Source of the DNA: Nitrososphaeraceae archaeon
GTDB taxonomy: Archaea; Thermoproteota; Nitrososphaeria; Nitrososphaerales; Nitrososphaeraceae
DNA length: 64,000 bases
Direction: 5' to 3'
Assembly (NCBI GenBank): GCA_009377575.1
Contig: WHTU01000009.1
Coordinates: forward strand, 1-64,000
The translations under genes and the position numbers were made by a program. Of the stretch, positions 828-63,902 are shown piece after piece; the stretch's first letter is position 1; every line of letters begins with the position of its first letter. The notes beneath the pieces are model-generated. The model worked only from the letters and a program-made list of their open reading frames with translations, did no database searches and had not been told where the DNA came from.

Positions 828-1313
828 CTATTCTTTTTCGTCATCTGCTGATACGTATAATTTGATTTGGAGATACCTTTCAAGCTTCTTTGCTAGCAAC
901 TCATCTGGCTTCAATGCCCCTGTCTCTACCTTCTTAAGGAGTGACGCCTTCTCACTCATCTTTATGGCTAACTGTTCATGGGTAAACCCCCTTTTCATAC
1001 GTGCTTCTCGAATCATTTTTCCAAAATCATGTGATAGAAAAGTTTCGTCGGTAAGTGGGATTCTGTTAGTAAGATATCCACGCTTCTTGACTACTGGTTG
1101 GTTTTTTGTAAGAGGTTGGCGAAACGAGGATTGTATTGAAGGACGAGTAGATGGCTTTATATTCTTGGGAATCCCTGGATTGTAGGGCTTTCCTCGTTTA
1201 GAACATTGAGTACATACTCTAAAAATTGTTCCTTCAATTACTACAGCTGTAAGATTTTCGTTAACCTGTCGTCCGCATACTTCGCAAAATGATGATGACG
1301 ACGATGTTGGCAA
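828..1313 (-). CDS. Archaeal multiprotein bridging factor 1 (aMBF1)
   Basis: This is an archaeal homologue of eukaryotic MBF1, a transcription coactivator that in archaea also associates with ribosomes. Residues 10-37 form a zinc ribbon (C10, C13, C34, C37: CEVC...CTQC). A basic linker follows, then a Cro/C1-type helix-turn-helix at about 95-150 (KMIREARMKRGFTHEQLA...KVETGALKPDE), the usual aMBF1 order. The length of 161 residues is normal. The start is TTG at 1313, because the Cys motif begins only ten codons later and no ATG precedes it. It lies 27 bases downstream of the PhoU-like gene on the same strand, so the two are probably cotranscribed. Confidence 0.9.
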   Translation of the reverse strand: MPTSSSSSFCEVCGRQVNENLTAVVIEGTIFRVCTQCSKRGKPYNPGIPKNIKPSTRPSIQSSFRQPLTKNQPVVKKRGYLTNRIPLTDETFLSHDFGKMIREARMKRGFTHEQLAIKMSEKASLLKKVETGALKPDELLAKKLERYLQIKLYVSADDEKE

Positions 1314-60560: not shown

Positions 60561-60570
60561 CTATATATAT
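60561..60570. promoter_or_regulatory. Symmetric TATA box shared by two divergent genes
   Basis: CTATATATAT reads as a TATA box in both directions. It is 20-29 bases before the ATG at 60590 on the plus strand and 20-29 bases before the GTG at 60541 on the minus strand, so one element could drive both genes. Confidence 0.5.
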
Positions 60571-60589
60571 GACTTACCATATGATAATT

Positions 60590-61453
60590 ATGACACAAAA
60601 AGTCAAAAAAATAGAAGTAATAAGCAAAAATGAATGCAAGATAGGACCTACAATAGCTACAGCCAAAAGCATTGAATCGATAGATAATTCGACAGGGCAA
60701 AGAAAAGATGTCAAGGAATCAGAGGGTGCAGATCCCCAAACCGAGGTAGATGAAGTGAAAGGGACCGAGGAAAAAACACATGCATTAGACCTTGGTGAAT
60801 ACTACATAGATCGTGCCATAGATACAATGGAGGAATGGCATTCAAAACCTAGAGATTTTGGCCACGTCTCAGATGTTGTTATGTGTCACAGGCAAAGATT
60901 ATACCGTGAAATAGACCGCCGACCACTCGGTTCCAAGAATGTAAGCATCTATTCATCAGGAAAAGCAATTCATGAAGCGGTACAATTGCTATTTCGTAGT
61001 GATAAGAGGACATTTGAAATAGAAAAATACGTGGAGTTCAAGGACATTTTAGGCTCGGTGGACATTTATGACAGGAAACGTAACATTCCTATCGAATTCA
61101 AGACTAGTCGAGCGTCTGATATAAAAGAACCCAAGAGCTTTCATGTGGACCAGCTAAAATACTATATGTCCATGTTAGGTGCCGAACAAGGATACATCAT
61201 ATATCAATTGCTAATGCATTTCGAAGACACACCATTCAAAACCTTCAGAATATTGATGAATGCGCAAGAAAGGAAGGACCAGCGTGATAAGTTAGTAAAG
61301 GAAGTAAATTCTCTAAAGAGAGCGATAGAAGCAAGAGACCCTTCTCTTGCAAGACCAGTAAACCATGATCCTTCGCTGAATTGGCTATGCAAATCGTGTG
61401 AGTATTTGGCGGATTGTAAAAAGATACAGCAGACCGCTGCGGTGGCGGCCTGA
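60590..61453 (+). CDS. Cas4-like iron-sulphur PD-(D/E)xK nuclease
   Basis: The protein has 287 residues from the ATG at 60590; the frame also has an ATG at 60569 inside the TATA box. A charged N-terminal ~70 residues lead into a RecB/Cas4-type nuclease. The first cluster Cys is C99 (VVMCHRQRLYRE), then GKAIHEAVQLL with H128, D158 in GSVDIYD and E169/K171 in IEFKTS. Motif IV is VDQLKYY (Q188, Y191), and the remaining cluster Cys are C267, C270 and C276 (WLCKSCEYLADC). This is the complete Cas4/Dna2-like active site with a 4Fe-4S cluster. No cas genes or CRISPR array are in the window, so a repair, viral or mobile-element role is as likely as spacer acquisition. Confidence 0.82.
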   Translation: MTQKVKKIEVISKNECKIGPTIATAKSIESIDNSTGQRKDVKESEGADPQTEVDEVKGTEEKTHALDLGEYYIDRAIDTMEEWHSKPRDFGHVSDVVMCHRQRLYREIDRRPLGSKNVSIYSSGKAIHEAVQLLFRSDKRTFEIEKYVEFKDILGSVDIYDRKRNIPIEFKTSRASDIKEPKSFHVDQLKYYMSMLGAEQGYIIYQLLMHFEDTPFKTFRILMNAQERKDQRDKLVKEVNSLKRAIEARDPSLARPVNHDPSLNWLCKSCEYLADCKKIQQTAAVAA

Positions 61454-61477
61454 TTTTGAATGGAGGTAAATATAGCA

Positions 61478-61690
61478 ATGGCATCCGGTGAAAATAAATG
61501 CAAGTACTGCGGCTCTAAAGAGTCATCTCTCGCTGTCAATGAGGTAGGAAATACGTACCAAAGATGGACTCGAAATCATTACGAAGAAGATAGTTGGATA
61601 TGCGGAATATGTTACAGAAACCTTCTGTATCTGAAAGCCCGTCCTCTAACTTATTTTCGTAGAAGGAAGCTTGAAAAGGAGCGGAAATAA
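61478..61690 (+). CDS. Single CxxC-x30-CxxC zinc-finger protein
   Basis: The protein has 70 residues from the ATG at 61478, preceded by GGAGGT (61462-61467), which decides against the ATG at 61460. It is essentially one finger: C8, C11, C42, C45 with 30 residues between the pairs. Trp sits 19 and 29 residues after the second Cys, and YRNLLYLKARP follows the last Cys. A basic tail ends the protein (RRRKLEKERK). The finger closely matches the first finger of the downstream composite nuclease (61692-62666). They lie one base apart, so they are in one operon and look like a duplicated module. Confidence 0.7.
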   Translation: MASGENKCKYCGSKESSLAVNEVGNTYQRWTRNHYEEDSWICGICYRNLLYLKARPLTYFRRRKLEKERK

Positions 61691-61691
61691 A

Positions 61692-62666
61692 ATGTCGAAT
61701 AGTCTATCAGGCAATACTATTGAACGAAAATGCGAGTACTGCGGCAATGACAGGACATATATGGCTGTTACTAAGGGAGGAACATCTTATCCAAAATGGA
61801 ATAGTAATCCTTTCAAAGAAGAGACGTGGATATGCGGAAAGTGTTACAGAAACCTACTGTATCACAAGGCTTTTCCTCCTATTCAAGTTCGTAGAAGTAT
61901 TCGGATAAACAGAATTGCAAAGCGAGTTTGTCATAAATGTGGCGGCAAGACAACAACTCAAAAAAGCAAGACCTCACCTAATGATTATCATATATGGCAT
62001 AGACATCCCGAAGTATCGAGCAAATGGCTGTGCGGTAGGTGTTATGCAAATTGGCTCTTTGAGCCTAGGCGAAGATTCAAGACTAAAGAAGAACGTTACC
62101 AATACATCAGCAAGTTATTTAGTGGCACAGGAAATCCCCAGTACGGAAATCATACATTAAATGTGGGTAGGGTTTACACTGAAGAGCGAAACAAAAAGGT
62201 TTCTGAAGCAGTCAAGCAGTGGGCCAAATTACACCCTGAGCATTACTATAGAATAGGCATTCTCGGCGCTATAAAGGCGAGAAAATTAGGGTTATCCGGT
62301 CTACCTACTGGTCTGGAGATCCGAATGGAGAAAGCGCTTAAGGAACATAAGATACAGTACATCCCTCAATATCGATATGGCATAGGCATAATGGATTTCT
62401 ATCTCCCTGAAGGAAACATAGCGTTATTTGTTGACGGAGGAGTATGGCACGCTGATCCCAGACTATTCGATGCCACAGATATTCTATTTTTCAAATTCAA
62501 GACTTCAAGAAATGAACCGATAACCGCCGAAGAGGTTTGGAAGAAGGATAGAATTCATACGAATTATCTAAAGTCGAAAGGGTATACCGTAGTTCGTTTC
62601 TGGGAGAAGGAGATAAAAAGTGAAATTGATAGATGTATAAAGATACTTCTTTATCAAAAGACATGA
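61692..62666 (+). CDS. Two-finger / NUMOD3-like / Vsr-type nuclease composite protein
   Basis: The protein has 324 residues from the ATG at 61692, with AAGGAGCGG at 61675-61683 as ribosome binding site. Finger 1 is C14, C17, C48, C51 and finger 2 is C80, C83, C114, C117, both with exactly 30 residues between pairs and Trp at the same two places. Residues about 144-175 (SGTGNPQYGNHTLNVGRVY / TEERNKKVSEAVKQ) resemble NUMOD3, a DNA-binding motif of homing endonucleases. Residues about 205-310 form a Vsr/EDxHD-like nuclease: E209 (GLEIRMEKAL), D235 (IMDFYL), H253 (FVDGGVWHADP), KKDRIHTNYLKSKGYTVVRFWEKEI. It is probably a free-standing homing or mobile-element endonuclease; the function is inferred. 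Confidence 0.72.
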   Translation: MSNSLSGNTIERKCEYCGNDRTYMAVTKGGTSYPKWNSNPFKEETWICGKCYRNLLYHKAFPPIQVRRSIRINRIAKRVCHKCGGKTTTQKSKTSPNDYHIWHRHPEVSSKWLCGRCYANWLFEPRRRFKTKEERYQYISKLFSGTGNPQYGNHTLNVGRVYTEERNKKVSEAVKQWAKLHPEHYYRIGILGAIKARKLGLSGLPTGLEIRMEKALKEHKIQYIPQYRYGIGIMDFYLPEGNIALFVDGGVWHADPRLFDATDILFFKFKTSRNEPITAEEVWKKDRIHTNYLKSKGYTVVRFWEKEIKSEIDRCIKILLYQKT

Positions 62667-62810: not shown

Positions 62811-63233
62811 CTAACTAAACATATCATCATGCAACCCTTTTGCGCGGGATGAAATATATTCTTCTGTTGAATCTATCAAGGTATACAATTCCGGCAAAAT
62901 AGATTCTCTATTTTCCTTACTAGCATAGATTAGATCGTTTATGAAATAGCGGGTGTACTGTTCGAATCTATGATCCTCTTTGACTTCTCTCATGCATTTT
63001 TTCCACGAATTCCAATATATCTGGAATCTTTCATCAGGATTAGCAAGATATTCTAGAATTTGTTTTGAGATAGATTTATGATGCTCTGAACTTTCGTCAG
63101 TAGAAGCCAATATTTCCTCTAGTTTACTCTTGTATTGCTGGCGTGCTTTTCTAGGCACATCCTCTGACCCTGGATCGTCTTTAGATGTGATTAAGATCCT
63201 GCTAAGTACGGATAGGGCTCCGGCTAGGAACAA
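62811..63233 (-). CDS. Downstream part of a split gene (C-terminal half)
   Basis: The 140-residue helical segment (AGALSVLSRILITSKDD...FQIYWNSWKKCMREVKED...RYFINDLIYASKENRESILP) opens at a TTG at 63233 without any ribosome binding site. The frame is the same as that of the upstream gene, and the 19 codons between that gene's TAG and this TTG are all sense (KIPEVWEKLDDEILSDHYS). It therefore looks like the C-terminal half of one protein interrupted by a stop rather than an independent gene. No domain recognised. Confidence 0.45.
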   Translation of the reverse strand: MFLAGALSVLSRILITSKDDPGSEDVPRKARQQYKSKLEEILASTDESSEHHKSISKQILEYLANPDERFQIYWNSWKKCMREVKEDHRFEQYTRYFINDLIYASKENRESILPELYTLIDSTEEYISSRAKGLHDDMFS

Positions 63234-63290
63234 ACTGTAGTGATCGCTTAGTATTTCATCGTCCAGCTTCTCCCATACTTCGGGGATTTT

Positions 63291-63902
63291 CTAAATCCGT
63301 TTTGTTATTGCTTGTTTCTCCAGGTCGCGCCACGCTGTAAGTTGAATTTTTTCAGTTGATGTAGAGTTAATTCTGTTCAGATACAACTTTAATTTTTCAA
63401 GAGATGTGTCTTCTAGATGATCACTCGTTTCGGTTGGCAAAACTGAAACGTTAATAGTATTACTAATAGTATTCTTGTCTTTGAAATGTTTCAACGATTT
63501 TGTGACTATATCCTTTACGTGATTCTCTATATGGCCAGGATCTTCTAAAATCTTGTTTCCATCAAGCATCTCAGGTACTACCGTTCCTTTTTTCGATTCG
63601 CTAATCCGTGTCTTTTGAAACTCTCTGACAAACTTACTGTTCTGTACAACTGTTGATTGAGCTACTACAATCTTAATATGCGCATCCGATCTTATTAAAA
63701 GAAGCATATCACGGAAAAAGTTTGCAAGTGAATCAGTCCAGATAATCTCAATCATCAACTCAATTCCATCTGAATTAATTGAAAAAATGTCCAATTCTTG
63801 TCCCGATGAAGGATATTCAGTTATAGTGACGCCAAACCAGTCACTTAGCTTCTTTGCCATTAATATTTTGATTGAGTTATGCTTGCTGGTTTCACCTATC
63901 AA
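63291..63902 (-). CDS. Nuclease-like N-terminal half of a split gene
   Basis: The protein has 203 residues to a TAG at 63291-63293. Residues about 20-100 look like a PD-(D/E)xK-type fold: KKLSDWFGVTITEYPSSGQELDIFSINSDGIELMIEIIW, then LIRSDAHIKIVVAQSTVVQ. The acidic residues D38 and E52 are in the expected strands, but the usual Lys is not clear. The rest is Lys/Glu/Ser-rich helix. Reading through the TAG would extend it to 62811 for a total of about 363 residues. Start ATG at 63902. Confidence 0.55.
   Translation of the reverse strand: MIGETSKHNSIKILMAKKLSDWFGVTITEYPSSGQELDIFSINSDGIELMIEIIWTDSLANFFRDMLLLIRSDAHIKIVVAQSTVVQNSKFVREFQKTRISESKKGTVVPEMLDGNKILEDPGHIENHVKDIVTKSLKHFKDKNTISNTINVSVLPTETSDHLEDTSLEKLKLYLNRINSTSTEKIQLTAWRDLEKQAITKRI

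What the first reader, a model, noticed from the sequence alone, without database searches (positions are those of the whole stretch)
62811..63902. Gene split by a single in-frame TAG: pseudogene, readthrough or recent mutation
The nuclease-like frame ends at TAG (63291-63293), but the same frame continues with 159 further sense codons to 62811. The second half has only a TTG start without a ribosome binding site, 19 codons after the stop. A single base change would restore one protein of about 363 residues.
Basis: seen in the sequence. Interest (0 to 1): 0.55.

Follow-up and report, generated by a model that had tools for sequence, protein, structure and literature searches.

The report
Archaeal nuclease-like gene cut by stop
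A rare accessory gene of an archaeon, probably for a two-part defence-like protein, appears to have been cut in two by one recent stop codon; this is an ordinary broken-gene pattern rather than a new way of reading the genetic code.

Summary
On the minus strand a 203-codon frame (63902-63294) ends in TAG (63293-63291), and the same frame runs 159 more sense codons to a TAG at 62813-62811. The second part is coding by codon usage, and so are the 19 codons between the stop and the first possible restart, which a separate gene would leave untranslated.

Searches of up to 400 genomes each found four relatives of the first part. All four are uninterrupted frames of 417-455 codons with a further C-terminal domain. 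Three are APAZ proteins beside a short prokaryotic Argonaute. The window protein shares their N-terminal, presumably PD-(D/E)XK domain but not APAZ, and its genome has no such Argonaute. Its C-terminal part is an orphan, predicted all-helical.

TAG is an ordinary stop here (7 of 40 other ORFs). No pyrrolysyl-tRNA synthetase or CTA-anticodon tRNA was found. Best reading: one gene for about 363 residues, interrupted by a recent nonsense change, a strain polymorphism or a consensus error; reads were not available to separate these. Two cistrons are less likely; programmed readthrough is unsupported. Interest is low.

The parts
63291..63902 (-). First part of the interrupted gene: TTG start, 203 codons, then TAG; residues 1 to about 140-165 are the domain shared with archaeal nuclease-APAZ proteins
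63291..63293 (-). In-frame TAG that separates the two parts
63234..63290 (-). 19 codons between the TAG and the first possible restart; coding-like (+4.08 bits, above all 40 other post-stop segments)
62811..63290 (-). Second part of the same frame: 159 sense codons and a TAG; orphan sequence, predicted all-helical

Best explanation
One accessory gene coded for a protein of about 363 residues: an N-terminal domain of the type that heads archaeal nuclease-APAZ proteins beside short Argonautes, followed by an unrelated helical C-terminal part, presumably for binding a partner or substrate. A single TAG at codon 204 now interrupts it. Ordinary termination there gives a 203-residue product with the N-terminal domain and only the start of the helical part; the rest is not made, or only at trace level. 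The gene is therefore a very young pseudogene (or a strain polymorphism, or an error in the assembled consensus). Shown: both frames, coding signal on both sides and in between, uninterrupted relatives of the first part, ordinary use of TAG as a stop. Inferred: nuclease activity, the role of the helical part, loss of function, recency.
For: Both halves are coding-like and open. The 19 codons between TAG and TTG 63233 score above all 40 other post-stop segments. 4 of 4 relatives of the N-terminal domain continue without a stop into a C-terminal region. Single-sequence models put the TAG inside one predicted helix (low to moderate confidence). TAG ends 7 of 40 other ORFs; no PylS above its cut-off and no CTA tRNA. 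Only one disruption in 363 codons although 5.5% of single changes would make a stop. Broken copies of neighbouring accessory genes occur in the same genome.
Against: No homologue covers both halves: the second half has no confident relative and does not resemble the C-terminal parts of the relatives. Same-frame neighbours occur elsewhere in the contig. Coding score dips in the two 40-codon windows just after the stop, 0.03 and 0.00.
Confidence: 0.78

Rival explanations
1. Two adjacent genes that share a frame by chance: a 203-residue protein and a 140-residue protein started at TTG 63233.
For: 5 other same-frame coding-like neighbours lie in the contig; TTG is the first start codon of many ORFs here; the N-terminal domain is complete before the TAG; no full-length homologue is known.
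Against: The 19 codons skipped by this reading are coding-like; the 5 other pairs have a start 0-9 codons after the stop; none of 4 relatives ends after the N-terminal domain.
Confidence: 0.15
2. Programmed or suppressor-driven readthrough of the TAG gives a regulated full-length protein.
For: The downstream frame has no further disruption. Reports exist that in-frame stops in bacterial genes need not mean pseudogenes (PMC7918605, abstract and section 2.1 read).
Against: TAG is an ordinary stop, no PylS above cut-off, no CTA tRNA among 35 tRNA matches (list incomplete), no unusual RNA structure after the stop (z -1.14), and the TAG is not seen in any relative.
Confidence: 0.04
3. The gene is intact in the organism and the TAG is an error, or a minority allele, in the consensus of this fragmented assembly. 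This is a sub-case of the single-gene reading; its probability is counted within the 0.78.
For: The genome is in 380 contigs with 2.41% contamination, which suits assembly from a mixed sample; one base is all that is needed.
Against: The TAG is not in a homopolymer run, and substitution errors in a consensus of good depth are uncommon (general knowledge). No reads were available.
Confidence: 0.2

Closest known systems
Nuclease-APAZ (REase-APAZ) proteins of short prokaryotic Argonaute systems (PADLOC Aga_REase-PNTD1-PNTD2; cf. DUF4365-APAZ of PMC10810196, abstract and passages seen)
   Same: N-terminal domain is 32-39% identical to that of three such archaeal proteins (L007, L031, L041/L032)
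   Different: No APAZ domain, no pAgo_I match in the own genome, different helical C-terminal part
[quoted passage not shown] 2021, PMC7918605)
   Same: Single in-frame stop in an otherwise open coding frame; [quoted passage not shown]
   Different: No set of close orthologues here, so persistence and dN/dS could not be tested
L002, a 417-codon protein in genome G035 of the same family
   Same: N-terminal domain 34% identical; no APAZ match; no pAgo seen among the ORFs of its 6,971-base contig
   Different: Uninterrupted; its C-terminal region does not resemble that of the window protein

Membership tests
Recent pseudogene by nonsense change | Coding signal continues beyond the stop in the same frame | tested here: met
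Recent pseudogene by nonsense change | Relatives are uninterrupted at this architecture | tested here: inconclusive
   4 of 4 relatives of the first half are uninterrupted, but none shares the second half
Recent pseudogene by nonsense change | Stop codon really present in the organism's DNA | not testable with these tools
   no reads; only one genome per species is held
Short-pAgo-associated nuclease-APAZ protein | N-terminal effector domain of that kind | tested here: met
   32-39% identity to three of them; profile E 3.2e-86 own, 1.2e-49 and 6.6e-49 others
Short-pAgo-associated nuclease-APAZ protein | APAZ domain | tested here: not met
Short-pAgo-associated nuclease-APAZ protein | Short pAgo gene beside it or in the genome | tested here: not met
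   no pAgo_I match in own genome; none among neighbouring ORFs
PD-(D/E)XK nuclease | Catalytic motif and fold | tested here: inconclusive
   D38 and E52 invariant in 5 sequences, W55 where K is usual (motif recalled); no Pfam or PDB match; model of this part too poor
Pyrrolysine / UAG recoding | PylS in the genome | tested here: not met
   best 27.8 bits against cut-off 178.15
Pyrrolysine / UAG recoding | tRNA with CUA anticodon | tested here: not met
   none among 35 tRNA matches after resolving one false call; list incomplete
Pyrrolysine / UAG recoding | TAG rare as a stop | tested here: not met
   7 of 40 other ORFs end in TAG
Lamassu LmuA | LmuA profile match | tested here: inconclusive
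   E 1.1e-4 for the second half alone, nothing at E <= 10 for the joined frame

The most novel reading that the evidence does not exclude
The N-terminal effector domain of an archaeal short-Argonaute system is also used without Argonaute, on a different helical sensor part, as an undescribed defence protein, and the TAG sets a low or switchable level of the full-length effector rather than destroying the gene.
Probability: 0.04. Interest if true: 0.5.

Novelty: new member of a known kind. Interest (0 to 1): 0.17.

Why it matters
Little as it stands: single in-frame stops in accessory genes are common. The useful by-product is that an N-terminal domain of Argonaute-linked nuclease proteins in these archaea also occurs without APAZ and, as far as seen, without Argonaute (the window gene and G035), which points to an effector domain exchanged between systems. 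Annotators should record one interrupted gene here instead of two small proteins.

Tried and rejected
Recoding of TAG: rejected on stop usage, absence of PylS and absence of a CTA tRNA. My first probe, PylC-like_N, was uninformative because its control shows that it rings in genomes of many kinds. LmuA for the second half: one weak profile hit, not reproduced with the joined frame, not used. Matches of the second half to proteins of about 600 residues: two of these were read (L037, L018) and look like DEAD-box/XPD-type helicases by eye, so I took them as chance. A match to a 294-residue helical protein of the same genome (C348) beats 500 of 500 shuffles over 78 residues but was picked as the best other place of the genome at E = 0.0083, and the rest of the two proteins shows nothing: left open. 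PDB fold search of the helical part: best E 0.27, no match. PDB sequence searches: nothing credible. Phages, plasmids and viral contigs: no relative. Genome contigs: none. A structure behind the TAG: z = -1.14, ordinary. In one search the frames printed for several minus-strand loci (e.g. L034, L035, L020) were taken at a wrong offset and were not used.

Full report
What is there. On the minus strand, TTG at 63902 opens a frame of 203 codons that ends in TAG at 63293-63291; the same frame has 159 more sense codons and ends in TAG at 62813-62811. The window is bases 1-64000 of contig C380 (89,824 bases) of a 3.89-Mb genome in 380 contigs, 99% complete. A CDC48-like ATPase and introns in the tRNAs fit an archaeon; that it belongs with the Nitrososphaeria is my impression from such genes and comes from no call.

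Is the second half coding? A codon model trained on 40 other ORFs of the window gives 0.133 bits/codon for the first half and 0.092 for the second; 80 true coding chunks of 159 codons have median 0.114 (5th percentile 0.016), and 400 wrong-frame chunks have 95th percentile 0.003. Five of the six frames of the second half carry 6-17 stops, the sixth none. The training ORFs were chosen by length and little overlap, not by annotation, so a few may not be genes.

One gene or two? If the second half were its own gene, it would start at TTG 63233 and the 19 codons before it would be untranslated. Those 19 codons score +4.08 bits, more than any of the 40 segments that follow the stops of the other ORFs (mean -1.6, highest 3.1) and at the 75th percentile of 804 true coding chunks. 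Against this, the two 40-codon windows just after the stop score only 0.03 and 0.00 bits/codon. In the contig, 8 places have 100 or more open codons on both sides of one stop in one frame; 6 are coding-like on both sides, and the other 5 of these have a start 0-9 codons after the stop, against 19 here. Two single-sequence AlphaFold2 models place the TAG inside one continuous helix (185-212 of the joined frame; 31-53 of the C-terminal piece, where the TAG is residue 45). Confidence is low in the first (mean pLDDT 44.8) and moderate in the second (64.2, pTM 0.57); the letter at the TAG was an arbitrary Q.

Relatives. The searches were: 101 genomes of relatives including the own one (at E <= 0.001 own and G035), 400 genomes of the class with the joined frame (28 listed at E <= 1, of which only own and G103 reach 0.001), 398 of the phylum with a profile (own, G709, G715), and 400 of the class with a better profile (own, G103). 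These sets overlap. So there are four relatives besides the window gene: L002 (417 codons), L007 (450), L031 (435) and L032 (455), lengths being open frames. All four run without a stop from the N-terminal domain into a C-terminal region. Three of them match PADLOC APAZ-type profiles (E 2.1e-44, 2.5e-37 and 4e-35) and are followed directly by a short pAgo. In these profile matches the N-terminal domain itself is mostly not covered, so 'nuclease' is inferred from its place in a nuclease-APAZ protein and from the motif (invariant D38 and E52, with W55 where K is usual; the motif is recalled). Pfam, NCBIfam and PHROGs gave no family for the N-terminal part of the window protein, and the PDB nothing credible.

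The C-terminal part. It does not resemble APAZ or the C-terminal part of L002 (positive controls in the same call score 218-413 against shuffle means of about 33). It has no relative in genome contigs or, as part of the joined frame, in viral contigs, and only weak matches in 70 genomes of the family; the best of these is a 294-residue helical protein of the same genome at E 0.0083. The own genome has no pAgo_I match. So the gene is not a short-pAgo partner of the known make-up, although its first domain is shared with such partners.

Recoding. TAG ends 7 of 40 other window ORFs, TGA 19 and TAA 14 (the 41st row of that table is the ORF in question). The best PylS match is 27.8 bits against a cut-off of 178.15. 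Of 35 tRNA matches none has a CTA anticodon: 30 loci were read by ARAGORN without introns, and 13 loci again or for the first time with introns; two that remained (L075, L078) were read by eye as Arg(CCT) and probably Ser(CGA). ARAGORN's intron mode reported a tRNA-Pyl at L079 218-321 (C44), but the same place is a tRNA-Asp(gtc) without intron. The list is not complete (150 of 216 candidates scored). RNA folding after the TAG is ordinary. A review of archaeal recoding (PMC8211752, passages seen) speaks of UAG recoding through pyrrolysine in those passages.

How it most likely works. An accessory gene for a two-domain protein, an effector-like domain shared with nuclease-APAZ proteins plus a helical part, acquired one stop. 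Ordinary termination leaves a 203-residue piece with only the start of the helical part. By analogy with DUF4365-APAZ/pAgo (PMC10810196; abstract and passages seen), where the nuclease acts in a complex with its partner after target recognition, a domain without its binding part is probably inactive or unregulated; this is inference. Only one disruption in 363 codons, when 5.5% of single changes would make a stop, suggests that little time has passed. The setting fits: the neighbouring genes at 60569-62666 have partial and frame-broken copies elsewhere in this genome.

Verdict. Observation confirmed; one interrupted gene about 0.78, separate cistrons 0.15, programmed readthrough 0.04. Within the single-gene reading, a true mutation, a polymorphism and a consensus error (about 0.2 of the whole) cannot be separated here. 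It is ordinary, with a small point of interest in the shared domain.

Noticed in passing
1341-2402 and 828-1313, minus strand: Another same-frame pair split by one stop (TAA at 1343), both sides coding-like, next start 9 codons later; either two neighbours or a second interrupted gene.
   Followed up: no
60569-62666, plus strand: A Cas4-like PD-(D/E)XK gene and zinc-ribbon/DUF559-Vsr-like endonuclease genes have further copies in the same genome (C374 at 80% DNA identity, C358, C22), one with an in-frame TGA and several partial: a repeated, decaying module.
   Followed up: partly
L007 1483-2835 and L032 upstream of 1845: In two nuclease-APAZ relatives the homology begins upstream of the first ATG/GTG/TTG-started ORF listed in that frame, so their true starts are unclear.
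   Followed up: no
L026 13898-18796, minus strand (contig C380 about 65.9-70.8 kb): A run of small ORFs with a 505-codon ORF that has a P-loop-like motif by eye lies just beyond the window; none of the five of these ORFs that I scanned has a Pfam match at E <= 0.01. It may be an integrated mobile element.
   Followed up: partly
C348:10552-10788 of the own genome (L042 1922-2806): The end of a 294-residue helical protein resembles the end of the second half over 78 residues (E 0.0083; 0 of 500 shuffles as good); possible shared helical module.
   Followed up: partly
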